Source: a virus. From it: a DNA stretch of 24,466 nucleotides. The DNA lies in the IMG/VR virus record IMGVR_UViG_3300006875_000158, positions 1 to 24,466 of that record; one strand, written 5' to 3'. Shown here piece by piece: positions 6,567 to 12,279 of this stretch. Made by a program: the position numbers and the translations under genes. The stretch's first letter is position 1; each line of letters opens with the position of its first letter. The notes under the pieces were generated by a model that saw only the letters and a list, made by a program, of their open reading frames with translations, did no database searches and was not told where the DNA came from.

Positions 6567-6596
6567 TACGGTTAGTCCGTGAAACGCGGAAAGCCG

Positions 6597-6917
6597 ATGA
6601 AACGCACGCCCCTCGCAAAGAGGTCAGCCAAGCGTCAGGAAGTCTATAAAGAGCGCATACCGCTTGTAAAGCGCCTGCTTAAAGAGCGTCCATGGTGCGA
6701 AGCATGCCCTGTCTTTGCTAAGCACGACAAGGTAGTTGTTTATATTCGACGTCCAAGTCAGGACATCCACGAGTTGAAGCGTCGGAGCCAGATGGGTTCA
6801 ATTCTTGACGAGAGCAATCTATTGGCAGTATGCCGTGAGTGCCATCGGCGTATTGGAAATGAACCGCAGTTGGCATTTGACCTTGGACTCTCTATTCACG
6901 GCTGGGAAGAAGACTAA
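6597..6917 (+). CDS. HNH endonuclease-like protein
   Basis: The product has 106 residues from this ATG, which has GGAAAG four bases upstream. A GTG at 6579 would add six residues, but it has no ribosome-binding site and sits inside a small ACGG/CCGT hairpin; it cannot be excluded. The N-terminus is very basic (KRTPLAKRSAKR). A zinc ribbon is formed by WCEAC (two Cys) and CREC (two Cys). The HNH residues are His in DIHEL, Asn in DESN and His in CRECH. This is the common layout of small phage HNH proteins, which nick or cut DNA and in several phages assist packaging or junction processing. The neighbours are recombination genes, so a role in recombination intermediates is plausible. Confidence 0.85.
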   Translation: MKRTPLAKRSAKRQEVYKERIPLVKRLLKERPWCEACPVFAKHDKVVVYIRRPSQDIHELKRRSQMGSILDESNLLAVCRECHRRIGNEPQLAFDLGLSIHGWEED

Positions 6918-6926
6918 GGCTCAGTC

Positions 6927-7463
6927 ATGAAATCAATTCTTGGTCTTGACCTCTCCTTGACAAGCACCGGCTACAGCGGATGTGGCAAGAGTGGAGCGAT
7001 TTCATCTAAATTCAAGGGAGTAGAGCGCCTAGATGACATTAGTCAACAACTTCATAATTTAGTTACAACATTACCAAATGACACAGTTGTCATTATAGAA
7101 GGCTATTCATTTGCAAGTCGTCATTCACAGGCTCACGCAATTGGAGAACTCGGTGGCGTCGTAAGGCTGACCCTTCATCGGTTGGGCATTCCGTTCATAG
7201 AAGTTCCACCCACCTGCCGAGCAAAGTTTGCAACTGGACGCGGAAATGCATCAAAGAATGAGGTTATTTCTGCGCTCTCAGCAAGAACAGGAATTATTTG
7301 GTCCGGTAAAAGCGCCGACGATGAGGCTGATGCATGGATTCTAGAAGAGATGGGCAGATGCATTGTGGGCAACCAGCGTTACGACTGGCCCAAAGCAAAC
7401 CTTGATGCCCTAGACAAGATAGACTGGTCACTTATTAAGAACTATGGAGATACTAATGAATGA
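6927..7463 (+). CDS. RuvC-like Holliday-junction resolvase
   Basis: The product has 178 residues. The RNase H fold acidic residues are all visible: Asp8 in ILGLDLSLTSTG, Glu58 in VVIIEGYSF, and the C-terminal cluster SADDEADAW (Asp131, Asp132, Asp135). In this superfamily they bind two metal ions and cut branched DNA. Phage RuvC-like resolvases debranch replicating or recombining DNA before packaging. AAGG precedes the start by about nine bases. It completes the set of annealer, exonuclease, HNH protein and resolvase. The next gene begins inside its last codons. Confidence 0.85.
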   Translation: MKSILGLDLSLTSTGYSGCGKSGAISSKFKGVERLDDISQQLHNLVTTLPNDTVVIIEGYSFASRHSQAHAIGELGGVVRLTLHRLGIPFIEVPPTCRAKFATGRGNASKNEVISALSARTGIIWSGKSADDEADAWILEEMGRCIVGNQRYDWPKANLDALDKIDWSLIKNYGDTNE

Positions 7464-7674: not shown

Positions 7675-8050
7675 CGGCCCGAACCTCTACCTGATAGCCG
7701 AACTAGATGCCAACTGCGCAGTCATGGGGGCGTACTACTGCGGAGAATGCCTCCAATGTCAGGCATCTGCTGAAATTAGACGGTTGCGCGCTGAGCGCGA
7801 CCACTGGAAATCCCAATATGCCTCAGCGATGAAAATGATTGATGAACTGGATATTGAACTTGAGCGTTTTCATGAGGACTATAACCTCATTCAATTAGTT
7901 GCTCGCTATGGAAGTCATAGTGCTCTCGTTGACGCTTGGGGCGAGGATAAGGCGAGCATCGTACATGCCGAATTAAGTGAAGCAGAAAAACGTCACCGGT
8001 CATATCAGTGGAACCAAATTATGAGACAAGCAAAGGCAGACAATGACTAG
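7667..8050 (+). CDS. Helical protein with a CxxCxxC motif, function unknown
   Basis: About 127 residues from the GTG at 7667 (or 7664). AAAGGCGG lies just upstream, and the start overlaps the end of the previous gene. The open frame reaches back to 7532, but that stretch runs inside the preceding gene and reads like its shadow, so I exclude it. Near the N-terminus is YYCGECLQCQA, three cysteines that could bind metal. The helical EIRRLRAERDHWKSQY and a longer coil follow. It has no recognised family. The last eight bases overlap the next ATG. Confidence 0.6.
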   Translation: MSDGPNLYLIAELDANCAVMGAYYCGECLQCQASAEIRRLRAERDHWKSQYASAMKMIDELDIELERFHEDYNLIQLVARYGSHSALVDAWGEDKASIVHAELSEAEKRHRSYQWNQIMRQAKADND

Positions 8051-8387
8051 AAGTCGCCCAATAAGTCAGGTCGAAGTTGAAGAGGAAATCATGCGTCTTA
8101 CTGACCTGCTGGAACAGGAAACAGAAGCGTTTGAGACACTCGCTGTTGACTCCTCAGTAAAAGAAGCAAATTATAAGTCCACTTGGGCGAAAGAATACCT
8201 TGGCGCTAAAGGCTCCATTAAAGAGCGTGAGGCATGGGCAGACTACAAACTTGAGGACCTAACGCATCAGTACAAAATCAGCGAGGCGCTCGTCAAGGCT
8301 AAGAGAGAAAAACTCCACTCCCTCAGGACATCAATCGATGCCCTACGGACGCTGGCTGCAAACGTGAGAGCGCAGGTGATGCAATGA
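8043..8387 (+). CDS. Coiled-coil protein of unknown function
   Basis: The 114-residue product starts at the ATG at 8043, inside the end of the previous gene, with AAAGG upstream. It is almost entirely charged helix: EVEEEIMRLTDLLEQETEAF, then a KYLGAKG-like middle (KEYLGAKGSIKEREAWADY), then KREKLHSLRTSIDALRTL. The 4-3 hydrophobic spacing suggests a coiled coil. Its stop overlaps the ParB-like start (ATGA), so it may be translated stoichiometrically with the ParB/PAPS-reductase cassette. No function can be assigned. Confidence 0.65.
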   Translation: MTRSRPISQVEVEEEIMRLTDLLEQETEAFETLAVDSSVKEANYKSTWAKEYLGAKGSIKEREAWADYKLEDLTHQYKISEALVKAKREKLHSLRTSIDALRTLAANVRAQVMQ

Positions 8388-9160
8388 GACATCAAGTAGA
8401 CGAGTCACTCAAAGACCTTTTAGTTGAAGTATCAACACTGGTTCCACTAGAGAACAACCCACGGCGAGGAAATGTTGAGGCAATCCTTGCGTCATACCGT
8501 GAGTTCGGTCAACTTAAGCCCATCGTCGTTCGCCCAAATGATGATGGAACAGCAACCGTTATCGCTGGAAATCATCAACTCCAAGCCGCTAAAAAACTCG
8601 GCTGGACACATATTGCTGCCGTAAAGTTTGATGCTGACGATTCCCGAGCAGTGGCATTTGCTCTAGCAGATAACAGAACAAATGAACTTGGATACACCGA
8701 AGCATCTGCCCTTAATGCTCTTCTTCAGGAAGTTAGCACCAACTACAGCGACCTGCTTGACGGGATGGGCTGGGATATGTTTGAGATGGCGTCCATCAGT
8801 GAGCAGGCGCGTCGTATTGAGATTGCTCAAGACTCCGAACCAGGCTATGTGGCTCCAGTAATCATTAATCCGATTACAGAAGAGCCACCTGCAATCGCCG
8901 TTCAGGAGACTGAAGATGGTGGGCGAATTGTTCCAGCACAGGATGTTGACAACCGCAAGGTAGCGACGACCGGAAGTACATTGATTGGGGCGTCTGGTGT
9001 AAAGAACGCTGTCGTCCAATACAGCCTTGTCTTTGACAATGTTGAACAGCAGACAAAGTGGTACTCGTTCATGCGCTGGCTTCGTTCTGACCCAGCAATT
9101 GATGGAGACACGTTTGCCGAGAAACTCATTAATTTTATTGACTCACACGCGGACTACTGA
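8384..9160 (+). CDS. ParB-fold protein, first of two in the cassette
   Basis: The product has 258 residues. The ParB/Spo0J N-terminal fold is clear: PLENNPRRGN (21-30), FGQLKPIVVR (41-50), the box IAGNHQLQAAKKLGW (60-74) and LADNRTNELG (94-103). The last motif is characteristic of ParB domains that elsewhere are joined to DNA methylases, yet no methylase domain follows. Instead there is a linker and a C-terminal domain with QYSLVFDNVEQQTKWYSFM, ending at the stop. ParB-fold domains bind and hydrolyse CTP in chromosome partition, and in other families act as nucleotide-processing or nuclease domains. Which applies here is unknown. It starts at ATGA with AGGTGA upstream and is followed two bases later by the PAPS-reductase-like gene. 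Confidence 0.85.
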   Translation: MRHQVDESLKDLLVEVSTLVPLENNPRRGNVEAILASYREFGQLKPIVVRPNDDGTATVIAGNHQLQAAKKLGWTHIAAVKFDADDSRAVAFALADNRTNELGYTEASALNALLQEVSTNYSDLLDGMGWDMFEMASISEQARRIEIAQDSEPGYVAPVIINPITEEPPAIAVQETEDGGRIVPAQDVDNRKVATTGSTLIGASGVKNAVVQYSLVFDNVEQQTKWYSFMRWLRSDPAIDGDTFAEKLINFIDSHADY

Positions 9161-9162
9161 CG

Positions 9163-10326
9163 ATGACAAGACAACGAATGTTCCTAGACATCAACTGTGT
9201 TGAAGCGGCGCGTGAACGGATACGTCATGTGTACGACACCTTTGACACCGTTTGTGTTCAGTTTTCGGGTGGAAAAGACAGCACAGCAGTGCTTTACCTC
9301 GCCAAGGAGATTCATGAAGAGCGAGGTCTTGGACCGGTAAAAGTCATTTTCCGAGACGAAGAAATGGTGTCGCCTCTGGTTCTTAAATACATTGAAGAGG
9401 TTCGACAATATGACTGGGTTGACATGGAGTGGTACTGCATGCCAATGGGTCAAGAAGTCTGGGTTCTAGGTCGGCGAGAGTTCTGTTTGCTGTGGTCCGC
9501 AAAGCGTGAGCGAGAAGGTCGTTTGTATCGCCCAATTCCAGAATGGGCAATTACCGCTGAGCACTTTGGCTTGACACGAGACCAAGTCCTTCCAGAGTCA
9601 ATTGACTACTACACAATGCAGGGAAAAACCGGACGAGTCGCATTCCTGACCGGAGTTAGGGCGAATGAGTCAATGATTCGCTATCGCGCATGCGTTCAGA
9701 AACTCCATGAGAACTACATCAATGTTCCCTTCAAAATGAAGAAGTCAATACCTTTACGGTTTGCGAAAGTCATTTATGACTGGACAACGAATGATGTTCT
9801 TAAGTTCATATCCGAGGAGCATGGGGCAAATTATTGCGAGTACTATGACCATGCCGCGGTCGCTGGCGCCAACACACGCGTTGGCATTCCGCTTCATTCT
9901 GTGGCTATCCGGCGCATTAAAGATGTGGTCAATACGGAGCCAGAGTTTTATGACCGGCTTGTGGAGTGCTTCCCTCATATTGATGCTCAGAGACGACTTT
10001 GGTCAGAGTTTGATATTGAACTGATGATTGAGATGTACTCATCACGTGGGTGGAAGGGCGTTGAATACTGCATCAACGAAAATATGTTGACTCCGGGTCT
10101 TCGCCAGAGAGCATTAGCATTTTCAGCAGAATTTCGTAAAAAGCACAAACTTGACCCATACTCCTACCCAGTAAGTTGGCTTATTCGTAATCTGTTGCTA
10201 AATGAGTTCAACATCAGTTCGGTAACACCAGTCGGACCAAAAACAAAAGCACATACAATGCGTTTAGCCGAAGCGCAAGAAATGGCTGAACTAGACGCCC
10301 TTGACTATCAGGATGATTCACGATAA
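9163..10326 (+). CDS. PAPS-reductase / DndC / IbrA-like ATP-pyrophosphatase
   Basis: The product has 387 residues. The PP-loop SGGKDST (35-41) binds ATP. FRDEE (63-67) follows the second strand. GVRANES with Arg173 (164-173) is the motif shared by DndC and IbrA-type proteins, and PLRFAKVIYDWTTNDVLKFI (197-216) matches the sulfurtransferase-like helical region. There is no C-terminal ECGxH of true PAPS reductases and no CxxC for an Fe-S cluster; its cysteines are scattered. Classical sulfite production is therefore unlikely, and activation of a substrate by adenylation is more likely. Length and the long C-terminal extension resemble the IbrA/YbdN group, which is typically paired with a ParB-like IbrB. 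Here a ParB-fold gene lies on each side. The stop overlaps the next start (TAATG). The ribosome-binding site is weak. Confidence 0.85.
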   Translation: MTRQRMFLDINCVEAARERIRHVYDTFDTVCVQFSGGKDSTAVLYLAKEIHEERGLGPVKVIFRDEEMVSPLVLKYIEEVRQYDWVDMEWYCMPMGQEVWVLGRREFCLLWSAKREREGRLYRPIPEWAITAEHFGLTRDQVLPESIDYYTMQGKTGRVAFLTGVRANESMIRYRACVQKLHENYINVPFKMKKSIPLRFAKVIYDWTTNDVLKFISEEHGANYCEYYDHAAVAGANTRVGIPLHSVAIRRIKDVVNTEPEFYDRLVECFPHIDAQRRLWSEFDIELMIEMYSSRGWKGVEYCINENMLTPGLRQRALAFSAEFRKKHKLDPYSYPVSWLIRNLLLNEFNISSVTPVGPKTKAHTMRLAEAQEMAELDALDYQDDSR

Positions 10327-10913
10327 TGAAACTATTAAGAGGAAAACATCAAATGATTGGCAATGGGGAAATGCAATGGGTGGACCCGAATTCTCTTCGG
10401 CTCGCCCCATGGCGCACGACCTATCTACTAAAGCCAGATTTAGAAATCCTTGCTCGGTCGCTTGAAGATTATGGGTGGCTCCAGCCTCTCGTAGTTCAGG
10501 CTCAGACAGGTGTCGTAATTGATGGCAACTATCGATATGAAGTTGCCTCAAATCTAAGCAAACTCTCCAAGGCAACAGGTGGACGAGTTCCTGTCATTAT
10601 GGTGGACTGTGACGACATTGAGGCAATGCTCCTCCATGCTCGGCTGAACCGAGGAAGAGGAAATGTCGTAGCGAGGAAACTTTCTCGTATTGTTCAGTCG
10701 CTCCTGCGGTCTCGCAAGTATGGTGAACCGGATATCAAGAGGGCACTAGGAATGTCAGCCGATGAAATGGACCTAATGGTTGACGGAACAATGCTCAAAG
10801 ACAAAAAAATTGGCGAGCATAAGTACTCGGCGGCTTGGGTCCCAGTGGAGGCTCCGGCAGGAACTGTGGATAAGGCGATGTCAATTGAGCGTCCGCCCAA
10901 TAGCGACGGATGA
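10326..10913 (+). CDS. IbrB-like ParB-fold protein, second of two in the cassette
   Basis: The product has 195 residues. The ParB fold is seen in LARSLEDYGWLQPLVV (42-57) and GVVIDGNYRYEVAS (62-75). These are followed by LHARLNRGRGNVVARKLSRI (103-122) and a helical C-terminus with ALGMSADEMDLMVDG. The R-L-N-R-x-R-G segment after the ParB box is the arrangement I associate with IbrB-like partners of IbrA/PAPS-reductase-like proteins. It is shorter than, and clearly divergent from, the first ParB-fold protein, so it is not a recent duplicate. The start at 10326 is coupled to the upstream gene by TAATG. An ATG at 10353 with AGAGG upstream is an alternative that removes nine residues. It ends the long tightly packed operon. 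Confidence 0.85.
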   Translation: MKLLRGKHQMIGNGEMQWVDPNSLRLAPWRTTYLLKPDLEILARSLEDYGWLQPLVVQAQTGVVIDGNYRYEVASNLSKLSKATGGRVPVIMVDCDDIEAMLLHARLNRGRGNVVARKLSRIVQSLLRSRKYGEPDIKRALGMSADEMDLMVDGTMLKDKKIGEHKYSAAWVPVEAPAGTVDKAMSIERPPNSDG

Positions 10914-11205: not shown

Positions 11206-12279
11206 ATGGGAAGAGTCTTGAAAATTGGTATTGCGTCGACCGATTGGTCGCGCTCTATGGTTGACAATGCTGGTCATCCGGTTCCTGGAGGCGCAAATTG
11301 GGTACGCCTTCAACAAAACCGTCGTCATATGAAGTATGTGACCGTCTCTGGTCTGCTTGTTCATAGTCCGACCAAGGGTTTTGGAATTCTGGATTGGAAC
11401 AAAAAAGCGCACTATGACTGTAAAGTCATTATTTTACAGCGACTGATGTTCAAGAATCTTGTTGAGAAACTTGACGATAGGCATAAATATGGTCAGGTCA
11501 TCATCAATGATATTGACGACTGGTACTGGGGTCTTCACGAAGACAACCACGCATACAAGTTGACACACCCTGACTTCAATAAAGACGAGAATATTGACCA
11601 CTACAAAAAAATTATTGAAGCATCTGACGGCGTAACGGTTAGTACGCCATTCCTCAAGAACAAATTTGAACAGGAATTTGACTGTCAGCGCGTTGATATT
11701 ATTGAGAACTGCGTAACAATGATTGACTTTCGAGTCCGGTATCACCGTTCACGCAGGGCAAAGGTTGGCTGGGTGGGGTCTACTTCGCACCGCTCTGGCG
11801 ACTTAGAACTTCTTGATGGGGTGCTCGGTGCTGGACCGTGGAGGCTTCATCACTCTGGGCATGTTAATGGGGCGGTTCATTTTGCCGACAAAGTTGGGGT
11901 GCGGCGAGAGGGTGTCACTCTCAGTCCAATGTTCCACCCTAAGGACTATGCCCGACTTTCATTTGAATTTGATATTGGCGTAGCGCCACTCAATGATATC
12001 CCCTTTAACCACGCTAAGTCATGGATTAAGGCTATTGAATATGCGTCTGCGGGGATTCCGGTAGTGATGTCTGACGTTGGTGAATATCGACGACTTCATG
12101 ACCAGTATGGAATCGGGAGGCTCGCATCTACCAAGGATGAGTGGATTGACCATCTTATGGAACTTAAGGATTACACAGCGCGAACACCTGAGGCGGCGCG
12201 AATCCGGAAGCAGGTCAAAGAACTGGATGTGTCAGTAATGGCTAAAAGATGGGATGAGGTTATTTCATCCTATCTATAG
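11206..12279 (+). CDS. GT-B-fold glycosyltransferase
   Basis: The product has 357 residues. A first Rossmann-like half contains VIINDIDDWYW (98-108) and ASDGVTVSTPFLKN (139-152). The linker into the second half is KVGWVGSTSHRSGD (186-199), a GT4-type glycine-rich strand-turn. The donor-binding region is FDIGVAPLND (255-264), HAKSWIKAIEYASAGIPVV (269-287) and SDVGEYRRL, where the Lys/Glu pair of helix KSWIKAIEY is typical of retaining GT-B enzymes. It transfers a sugar from a nucleotide-sugar donor. The acceptor is unknown: virion protein, phage DNA or a host surface glycan. It lies at the head of the late structural genes, which favours a virion protein. AAGGGG precedes the start. Confidence 0.85.
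   Translation: MGRVLKIGIASTDWSRSMVDNAGHPVPGGANWVRLQQNRRHMKYVTVSGLLVHSPTKGFGILDWNKKAHYDCKVIILQRLMFKNLVEKLDDRHKYGQVIINDIDDWYWGLHEDNHAYKLTHPDFNKDENIDHYKKIIEASDGVTVSTPFLKNKFEQEFDCQRVDIIENCVTMIDFRVRYHRSRRAKVGWVGSTSHRSGDLELLDGVLGAGPWRLHHSGHVNGAVHFADKVGVRREGVTLSPMFHPKDYARLSFEFDIGVAPLNDIPFNHAKSWIKAIEYASAGIPVVMSDVGEYRRLHDQYGIGRLASTKDEWIDHLMELKDYTARTPEAARIRKQVKELDVSVMAKRWDEVISSYL

What the first reader, a model, noticed from the sequence alone, without database searches (positions are those of the whole stretch)
8384..10913. ParB-fold / PAPS-reductase-like / ParB-fold triad in a phage operon
Three overlapping genes encode a ParB-fold protein, a DndC/IbrA-like PP-loop enzyme and a second, divergent ParB-fold protein. 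IbrA-IbrB-like pairs (one PP-loop enzyme, one ParB) are known; two flanking ParB proteins of different subtypes are less usual. The PP-loop protein keeps SGGKDST and GVRANES but has no ECGxH and no CxxC, so it is unlikely to be a sulfite-forming PAPS reductase. The first ParB carries the LADNRTNE motif otherwise seen with DNA methylases. Inference: a nucleic-acid modification or nucleotide-dependent switch acting on phage or host DNA, perhaps anti-restriction or anti-defence.
Basis: partly seen in the sequence, partly recalled or inferred. Interest (0 to 1): 0.75.

Follow-up and report, generated by a model that had tools for sequence, protein, structure and literature searches.

The report
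Phage ATP-enzyme with two ParB partners
This virus carries a trio of genes, an ATP-using enzyme usually labelled as a sulfur-metabolism enzyme plus two different DNA-partition-like proteins, that turns up together in several unrelated groups of bacterial viruses and probably marks or regulates nucleic acid rather than handling sulfate.

Summary
In detail: ParB1 (8384-9160), a PP-loop enzyme (9163-10326) and a second, different ParB (10326-10913) form a tight operon in a contractile-tailed phage. The trio is not a local oddity. It recurs in Arthrobacter, Mycobacterium (B3), Bacillus and Rhizobium phages and in Firmicutes, Treponema and Nocardia genomes. All 27 enzyme-bearing virus records of at least 60 kb examined hold all three genes; in 8 of them ParB1 lies more than 3 kb from the enzyme. 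The enzyme is unlikely to be a sulfite-forming PAPS reductase: 0 of 106 relatives have ECGxH and no cysteine is universal. Its model resembles FAD synthase (Z 16.8) more than PAPS/APS reductases (Z up to 14.7). It shares its invariant residues with IbrA but lacks IbrA's DUF3440 domain. ParB2 is IbrB-like; ParB1 has the domain that other phages fuse to DNA methylases. Best reading: an ATP-dependent, AMP-transferring nucleic-acid-marking module, with a transcription switch as close rival. Broad protection from restriction is unlikely: the window holds 0 GATC (72 expected) and 0 AGCT (95 expected). Function is inferred only.

The parts
8384..9160 (+). ParB1: ParB/Srx-fold N-domain (GNHQ in place of ParB's GERR, ADNR motif) plus a C-terminal VVQYxLVFDD...QQ domain
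   Evidence: Pfam ParB_N 2.5e-9; phrog_723 4.5e-40 over residues 9-255; AlphaFold2 pLDDT 87.7, pTM 0.60; nearest solved fold ParB 7bm8, Foldseek E 1.1e-8; motif counts
9163..10326 (+). PP-loop ATP pyrophosphatase-family enzyme annotated 'PAPS reductase' (phrog_2302), with a helical C-terminal part and without DUF3440
   Evidence: phrog_2302 7e-77; Pfam PAPS_reduct 1.6e-8; AlphaFold2 pLDDT 90.1, pTM 0.85; nearest solved structure by VIA-align human FAD synthase 8rom Z 16.8, 3.2 A, 172 residues; invariant residues
10326..10913 (+). ParB2: IbrB-like ParB/Srx-fold protein with invariant DGxxR and NRxRG-type motifs
   Evidence: phrog_2159 2.7e-30; aligned with annotated IbrB of a Streptococcus and an Escherichia phage; D66, G67, R70, N108, R109 in 70 of 70 rows
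8043..8387 (+). 114-aa protein of phrog_1389 (unknown function); candidate fourth member in this phage clade only
   Evidence: phrog_1389 2.3e-12; median identity 72%, about as conserved as PP (73%); directly upstream of ParB1 (within 400 nt) in 128 of 152 loci where both are found, overlapping loci counted; directly upstream of ParB2 in G003, where the trio is dispersed (locus L372)
6579..7463 (+). context: HNH endonuclease (6579-6917) and RuvC-like resolvase (6927-7463) upstream of the module
11206..12279 (+). context: glycosyltransferase (phrog_7162) downstream; in relatives it lies upstream or downstream of the trio

Best explanation
The trio is a conserved ATP-driven nucleic-acid-marking module. 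The middle protein is an adenylating (AMP-transferring) PP-loop enzyme, mechanistically closer to FAD synthase than to sulfonucleotide reductases. ParB2 (IbrB-like, with an invariant GxxR-type nucleotide loop) is its usual nucleotide-binding partner. ParB1, whose domain other phages fuse to DNA methylases, is the DNA-targeting arm. The module probably acts on phage DNA around recombination and packaging, because it sits among recombination or terminase genes in several lineages. Shown here: gene content and order, co-retention, shared invariant residues, fold, absence of a conserved catalytic cysteine, association of the ParB1 domain with methylases. Inferred: that AMP transfer is the chemistry, that nucleic acid is the substrate, that the three proteins form a complex, and the timing.
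For: Co-retention: all 27 PP-bearing virus records of at least 60 kb that I examined hold all three genes. ParB1 is over 3 kb from PP in 8 of the 27 (G003, G004, G015, G017, G020, G026, G046, G047); in G003 and G004 ParB2 is also some 68-69 kb away. Searching with ParB2 instead, 22 of 22 loci found lie in PP-bearing records: 10 already known, one, 11 new (one of these only a PP fragment at the contig end). Six named phages with PP hold ParB2; two cluster-B mycobacteriophages without PP hold no full ParB2. Chemistry: 21 positions including SGGKDS, D65, E67, W111, R123, GxRxxESxxR, DW and Y228 are invariant in 98 sequences; the most conserved cysteine column reaches 79%, and ECGxH occurs in 0 of 106; closest fold by VIA-align is FAD synthase, Z 16.8 against 14.7 or less for APS/PAPS reductases; the best profile hit in the PDB is also FAD synthase (E 9.2e-4). 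DNA link: the ParB1 domain is fused to DNA methylases. A terminase gene directly follows the module in Mycobacterium B3 and in seven Firmicutes-type loci, lies one gene on in Arthrobacter Kovu and four genes on in an M. abscessus prophage. Possible tailoring enzymes: a phrog_11826 methyltransferase in Nocardia with similar proteins in two phages, an acetyltransferase in Kovu, and glycosyl-, methyl- and acetyltransferase genes just before the IbrA-type enzyme of Microbacterium phage Hendrix.
Against: No biochemical data. Foldseek ranks a Vibrio PAPS reductase just ahead of FAD synthase, so the FAD-synthase preference rests on VIA-align and a weak profile hit. The only functional label on relatives is 'co-activator of prophage gene expression'. 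Total loss of GATC and AGCT in the window argues against any modification that shields the genome broadly. No fused PP-ParB protein was found in 241 loci. In 25 of 153 IMG/VR loci with full flanks no ParB2 lies within 3 kb. In nine virus fragments of 27-44 kb no full ParB2 and only three ParB_N matches were found. The ParB1 N-domain is common (423 phage records against 120 for the enzyme), and I ran no random-virus control for how often both ParBs occur without the enzyme, so part of the ParB1 co-occurrence may be coincidence. Many of the 27 records are related to each other.
Confidence: 0.4

Rival explanations
1. A nucleotide-dependent regulatory switch: the IbrA-like enzyme and the ParB-fold proteins bind phage promoters and activate late or lysogenic genes, without modifying DNA.
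For: Relatives are annotated as IbrA/IbrB, co-activators of prophage gene expression (the underlying E. coli eib work is recalled, not read). All 21 fully invariant PP positions are shared with IbrA-like proteins. Both ParBs match ParB/Noc folds or profiles. [quoted passage not shown]
Against: A fully conserved PP-loop active site is odd for a pure regulator; the ParB1 domain is joined to methylases elsewhere; in this clade PP is nearly as conserved as the terminase (median 73% against 82%).
Confidence: 0.3
2. A weapon against host or competitor: the module acts on host nucleic acid or on a defence component, and phage DNA is spared because it lacks the target sites.
For: Absolute loss of specific palindromes in the clade (107 of 1359 palindrome tests at or below 0.1 of expectation, 0 of 20778 non-palindrome tests).
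Against: Ordinary avoidance of host restriction explains the losses. Partial Mantel tests on 28 dereplicated loci give no firm link between palindrome loss and the trio's sequences: missing-set r 0.20 for ParB1 (32 of 500 permutations as high), 0.07 for ParB2 (98), 0.18 for PP (15); log-ratio profile r 0.07 (120), 0.04 (158), 0.10 (65) (six tests). B3 mycobacteriophages have the module and an excess of GATC.
Confidence: 0.12
3. A Dnd/Ssp-type phosphorothioation enzyme set.
For: PP-loop plus ParB-superfamily partner; weak DndC profile match (5.4e-5, 22.3 bits against a cut-off of 290.4).
Against: DndC has a cysteine dyad and a 4Fe-4S cluster held by cysteines, one of which was shown to be needed (PMC10853773 and PMC11662687, passages); the window protein has no CxxC and no cysteine is conserved across the family. 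No desulfurase, DndD or DndE family appeared among the 27 window proteins scanned with PHROGs or the 10 scanned with Pfam.
Confidence: 0.04
4. A true PAPS reductase, i.e. an auxiliary metabolic gene for sulfate assimilation.
For: Pfam and PHROG names; the reading given to viral cysH in papers (PMC9301287, passages; PMC6145125, passages).
Against: No ECGxH cysteine in any of 106 family members; no sulfur gene among the window proteins scanned; recurrent ParB partners.
Confidence: 0.02

Closest known systems
IbrA-IbrB pair (PP-loop protein with DUF3440 plus ParB-fold protein; 'co-activators of prophage gene expression')
   Same: Same PP-loop invariant residues; ParB2 aligns with IbrB and the order is the same.
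   Different: No DUF3440 in the window protein, nor in four triad phages, a Clostridia triad and an intein-bearing relative scanned; an additional upstream ParB1; nearest cellular relatives over long stretches only 35-37% identical.
FAD synthase / FMN adenylyltransferase (PAPS-reductase-like domain)
   Same: Closest solved fold over residues 6-242 by VIA-align, Z 16.8, 19% identity; shared DW...D...YCxxYD stretch.
   Different: FMN binding untested; extra helical C-terminal part; recurrent ParB partners.
PAPS/APS reductase (CysH)
   Same: PP-loop fold, Pfam PAPS_reduct; Z 14.7 or less; first in Foldseek.
   Different: No ECGxH segment in the family; no sulfur gene among the window proteins scanned.
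DndC/SspD with DndB/SspE
   Same: PP-loop enzyme working with a ParB-superfamily protein.
   Different: No conserved cysteine dyad or Fe-S cysteines; no desulfurase or DndD/E seen in the window.
Phage ParB-methylase fusions (phrog_498 and others)
   Same: Same ParB1-type N-domain.
   Different: Here the ParB1 protein has no methylase part and stands beside a PP-loop enzyme.

Membership tests
PAPS reductase (CysH) | PP-loop/PAPS_reduct domain | tested here: met
   Pfam PF01507 1.6e-8, 35.2 bits over cut-off 22.5
PAPS reductase (CysH) | C-terminal catalytic ECGxH cysteine | tested here: not met
   0 of 106 family members, window included
PAPS reductase (CysH) | sulfate-assimilation context | tested here: not met
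   no sulfur gene among the 27 window proteins scanned with PHROGs or the 10 with Pfam; the record may be a fragment
DndC | DndC profile above curated cut-off | tested here: not met
   TIGR03183 22.3 bits against 290.4
DndC | cysteine dyad and Fe-S cysteines | tested here: not met
   no CxxC in the window protein; most conserved cysteine column 79% in 98 sequences
IbrA | shared PP-loop active-site residues | tested here: met
   21 invariant positions over 98 sequences, 54 phage-type and 44 cellular/IbrA-like
IbrA | DUF3440 domain | tested here: not met
   absent in the window protein; present in L107, L090, L089, L088 and absent in L083, L084, L085, L086, L133, L369
IbrB | IbrB-type ParB downstream of the PP-loop gene | tested here: met
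   alignment A1 with annotated IbrB of two phages; survey
IbrA-IbrB | activation of prophage genes | not testable with these tools
   needs expression data
FAD synthase | PAPS-reductase-like FMN adenylyltransferase fold | tested here: met
   8rom Z 16.8, rmsd 3.2, 172 aligned; a shared fold shows no function
FAD synthase | FMN binding and FAD formation | not testable with these tools
   none
CTPase ParB | ParB N-domain fold | tested here: met
   ParB1 against 7bm8 Foldseek E 1.1e-8; ParB2 profile against Noc 7ol9 2.3e-10 (no model of ParB2 was made)
CTPase ParB | GERR nucleotide loop | tested here: not met
   ParB1 GNHQ in 48 of 67; ParB2 R70 kept in 70 of 70, the loop being GFHR or GYHR in 37
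CTPase ParB | parS site and ParA partner | not tested
   not searched

The most novel reading that the evidence does not exclude
The trio is the core of an undescribed, sulfur-free nucleic-acid modification system: a FAD-synthase-like enzyme transfers AMP to, or adenylates and substitutes, a group on DNA (or a DNA end) at places chosen by ParB1, licensed by ParB2. Interchangeable tailoring enzymes (methyl-, acetyl-, glycosyltransferases) and, in Firmicutes-type prophages, an imported small molecule (phage-borne SSF transporter) vary the product. A share of viral 'cysH auxiliary metabolic genes' would then be DNA-modification genes.
Probability: 0.25. Interest if true: 0.88.

Novelty: new variant of a known kind. 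Interest (0 to 1): 0.6.

Why it matters
Viral genes called cysH are often reported as auxiliary metabolic genes; one survey found them in 65% of Baltic sediment stations and read them as viral involvement in sulfur cycling (PMC9301287, passages). I did not test which sequences such surveys counted. It also turns a poorly understood pair, IbrA-IbrB, into a testable three-part system in culturable laboratory hosts (Mycobacterium smegmatis B3 phages, Bacillus subtilis phages).

Tried and rejected
(1) Motif over-representation as a footprint of the module. Prompted by the published GATC/GGATCC excess in B3 mycobacteriophages (PMC4841201, abstract and sections 13-14), which I reproduced on 49-kb stretches (Heathcliff 3.87, Ares 1.37, Zemanar 1.09). 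Other module-bearing phages do not share it (window 0.00, Bacillus 0.42, Kovu 0.70, Rhizobium 1.68, prophi79-1 2.24), so it is not a general signature. (2) Missing palindromes as a ParB-specified target: partial Mantel tests on 28 dereplicated loci gave nothing firm. No relative shown to lack the trio was found to serve as control: of 13 terminase-anchored records searched whole (of 80 loci found), 12 hold all three genes; G049 holds none, but it ends about 11 kb past its terminase, while in its near relative G048 the trio starts about 14 kb past it. (3) Protein fusions joining PP to a ParB: none in 241 loci. (4) Solitary PP in 'group 2' phages as evidence against a trio: the two group-2 records over 60 kb (G003, G004) carry ParB1 and ParB2 elsewhere; nine fragments of 27-44 kb mostly lack them, which a fragment cannot settle. 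(5) Single origin of the triad: a quick tree of 70 of 106 rows puts triads in at least three deep places, with at least four label changes forced and long-branch warnings, so I claim no origin. (6) A model of the complex was not possible with the tools; ParB2 was not modelled (two jobs only). (7) Literature: no paper describing the three genes as one system appeared in the listings; the library holds open-licence papers only. (8) DndC is not among the rows listed by VIA-align; that is no evidence of difference.
Full report
WHAT IS THERE. The window is a whole IMG/VR virus record of 24,466 bases, possibly a fragment, from a contractile-tailed phage: portal, terminase large subunit, exonuclease, HNH, RuvC, then the three genes of the finding, then a glycosyltransferase, head-tail proteins, sheath, tube and tape measure. 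The three genes lie on one strand. Counting from the 114-aa gene upstream of ParB1, the junctions are a 4-nt overlap, a 2-nt gap and a 1-nt overlap. ParB1 matches phrog_723, the enzyme phrog_2302, ParB2 phrog_2159.

IT RECURS. In named phages the same set is seen in Arthrobacter phage Kovu (gp5-gp6-gp7), Mycobacterium phage Heathcliff (gp1, gp4, gp5), Bacillus phage 031MP002 (80, 81, 85), Rhizobium phage L338C (gp088-090) and M. abscessus prophage prophi79-1 (92/93, 95, 97). tblastn finds the enzyme in 120 phage records and ParB2 in 98. The genus tallies agree for Mycobacterium (55 and 55), Arthrobacter (12, 12), Bacillus (6, 6) and Rhizobium (4, 4), but not for Streptococcus (21 and 10); Microbacterium (5) is named only in the enzyme's list and Faecalibacterium (3) only in ParB2's (tallies only, records not matched one by one). 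The ParB1 N-domain is commoner: 423 records, 60 of them with a place covering 80% or more of ParB1.

SURVEY. Profiles built from alignments A1-A3 were run over 241 loci. Of 153 IMG/VR loci found through the enzyme, 83 have both ParBs within 3 kb, 28 ParB2 without ParB1, 25 no ParB2 although both flanks are full, 17 cut flanks. Of 61 genome contigs with an enzyme hit over 80 bits, 15 have both, 41 ParB2 without ParB1, 3 no ParB2 with full flanks, 2 cut (19 weaker hits of the 80 fetched were left out). Many IMG/VR loci are close relatives, so these are not independent events.

CO-RETENTION WITHOUT LINKAGE. Where the enzyme stands alone the trio can still be in the genome. G003 (105.7 kb) and G004 (137.8 kb) hold the enzyme, ParB1 about 19 kb away and ParB2 about 68-69 kb away in linear coordinates. 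G015, G017, G020 and G026 keep enzyme and ParB2 together, with ParB1 40-85 kb off. In G046 and G047 ParB1 is about 9 and 7 kb off. Altogether 27 of 27 enzyme-bearing records of at least 60 kb hold all three: 13; four (G037, G039, G040, G042); ten (G046-G048, G052-G058). Searching with the window's ParB2, 22 of 22 loci lie in enzyme-bearing records, 11 of them new. Searching with ParB1, 10 of 11 loci do; the eleventh (L281) ends inside ParB1. Starting from the terminase, 12 of 13 records searched whole hold all three and one (G049, cut short) none (13 of 80 loci were given). Results against: in nine fragments of 27-44 kb no full ParB2 was found and ParB_N in only three. Ares and Zemanar, two cluster-B mycobacteriophages, lack the enzyme and a full ParB2; Ares has a weak ParB2 match (9.8e-5) near its left end. 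I ran no control on unrelated viruses of the same size.

THE ENZYME. Across 98 sequences, 54 phage-type and 44 cellular or IbrA-like, 21 positions are invariant: R19, S35-S40 (SGGKDS), D65, E67, W111, R123, G164, R166, E169, S170, R173, D206, W207, D211, Y228, R239. C225 is kept in 53 of 54 phage-type sequences but is N or P in 40 of the 44 others. ECGxH occurs in 0 of 106 rows, CxxC in 2 of 106, neither of them the window. The AlphaFold2 model is confident (pLDDT 90.1, pTM 0.85). VIA-align puts human FAD synthase first (8rom Z 16.8, 3.2 A, 172 residues, 19% identity; 8ron Z 16.6), then APS/PAPS reductases and yeast-type FMN adenylyltransferases at 14.7 or less. Foldseek alone ranks a Vibrio CysH (4.1e-7) just before FAD synthase (5.5e-7). 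The best sequence-profile hit in the PDB is FAD synthase too (9.2e-4), through the PP-loop and a DW...D...YCxxYD stretch. DUF3440, which marks IbrA, is absent from the window enzyme and from those of Kovu, Heathcliff, 031MP002, L338C, L133 and L369, and present in four IbrA-type proteins, one of them from Microbacterium phage Hendrix.

THE PARB PROTEINS. ParB1's N-domain aligns with Noc/ParB, but the GERR nucleotide loop reads GNHQ in 48 of 67 sequences. Its model matches ParB structures over about 150 alignment columns, and in the viral library both full-length phage ParB proteins and DNA methylases. ParB2 keeps G67 and R70 of a GxxR loop and N108-R109 in 70 of 70 sequences; its profile matches Noc and ParB well and free serine kinase only weakly. 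One plausible reading is a nucleotide-binding ParB2 and a catalytically altered ParB1; that the GERR loop binds CTP in ParB is recalled, and the reading is inference.

CONSERVATION AND CONTEXT. In this phage clade the enzyme is the second most conserved of 13 window proteins compared, median 73% identity against 82% for the terminase, 72% for the 114-aa protein, 53% for ParB1, 47% for ParB2 and 44% for the sheath (overlapping loci counted). A terminase gene directly follows the module in Heathcliff and in seven Firmicutes-type loci, one gene on in Kovu and four genes on in prophi79-1; in 031MP002 the module is at the right end and the terminase genes at the left end of the record. In the Rhizobium phage they are far apart. 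Relatives carry extra genes in or beside the module: a phrog_11826 methyltransferase in Nocardia with similar proteins in prophi79-1 and 031MP002, an acetyltransferase in Kovu, and glycosyltransferase, methyltransferase and acetyltransferase genes just before the Hendrix enzyme.

RESTRICTION SITES. The window contains 0 GATC (72 expected from trinucleotides) and 0 AGCT (95 expected). In 87 sequences of at least 9 kb (window included, many related), 68 have at least one 4-bp palindrome at or below a tenth of expectation; over all tests 107 of 1359 palindromes and 0 of 20778 non-palindromes do. The missing words differ between relatives. The simplest explanation is escape from host restriction, which speaks against a modification that protects the genome broadly. 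It does not exclude a sparse or purpose-specific mark.

MECHANISM. I commit to an ATP-dependent AMP-transferring, nucleic-acid-directed module at 0.4, with an IbrAB-like transcription switch at 0.3. Neither is shown. A sulfite-forming reductase and a Dnd-type phosphorothioation set are disfavoured by residues and context.

NOVELTY. The component families are annotated in public phage genomes, and the IbrA-IbrB pair is known. In the listings I found no paper treating the three genes as a system. I therefore call it a new variant of a known kind, with interest mainly because a widely reported class of viral 'cysH' genes may be misread.

Noticed in passing
window 1-24466; loci L004-L243 of at least 9 kb: Complete absence of particular 4-bp palindromes: GATC 0 (72 expected) and AGCT 0 (95 expected) in the window; all 22 loci of at least 9 kb without a nearby ParB2 lack GATC; missing words change between relatives.
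   Followed up: partly
L124, L125, L133, L134, L137, L142, L143, L148, L160, L164 (fragment in L120): Firmicutes/Treponema-type loci carry a sodium:solute symporter family protein (Pfam SSF in the three scanned: L133, L142, L164; the rest by similarity to L133) upstream of ParB1 and the enzyme, in eight of the eleven also a second PAPS_reduct-type protein, and in seven a terminase small subunit just downstream. No ParB2 was found at L160.
   Followed up: partly
L369:385-2487 (G047) and G051: The PP-loop gene is one open frame of 700 aa with an insertion of roughly 310-320 residues just before the residue equivalent to C92; it matches LAGLIDADG_3 above cut-off and Intein_splicing below cut-off: an apparent intein.
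   Followed up: partly
L282 (Mycobacterium phage Heathcliff, B3): GATC is 3.87 times over-represented in the B3 phage with the trio, against 1.37 and 1.09 in two cluster-B phages without the enzyme; the published B3 excess (PMC4841201) was left unexplained there.
   Followed up: partly
window 8043-8387; L372: The phrog_1389 protein is about as conserved as the enzyme and travels with ParB1, or with ParB2 in G003 where the trio is dispersed; possible fourth member.
   Followed up: partly
L015, L022, L031 and others, between ParB1 and the enzyme: Five loci have an inserted gene that looks to me like an HDAC-type deacetylase (by eye; no PHROG hit for the one scanned) and 13 a gene of the group of L005:5480-6001, which matches phrog_1590 and weakly an HNH family.
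   Followed up: no
L088 and record MH183162.1: Microbacterium phage Hendrix ends with glycosyltransferase, methyltransferase, acetyltransferase and an IbrA-type enzyme, and begins with an IbrB-like ParB, adjacent if the genome is circularly permuted.
   Followed up: partly
L043:3961-5220: Several loci with a solitary enzyme have an NGQHR-motif protein (phrog_5931 in the one scanned) near it, reminiscent of the DGQHR motif of DndB (resemblance recalled).
   Followed up: no
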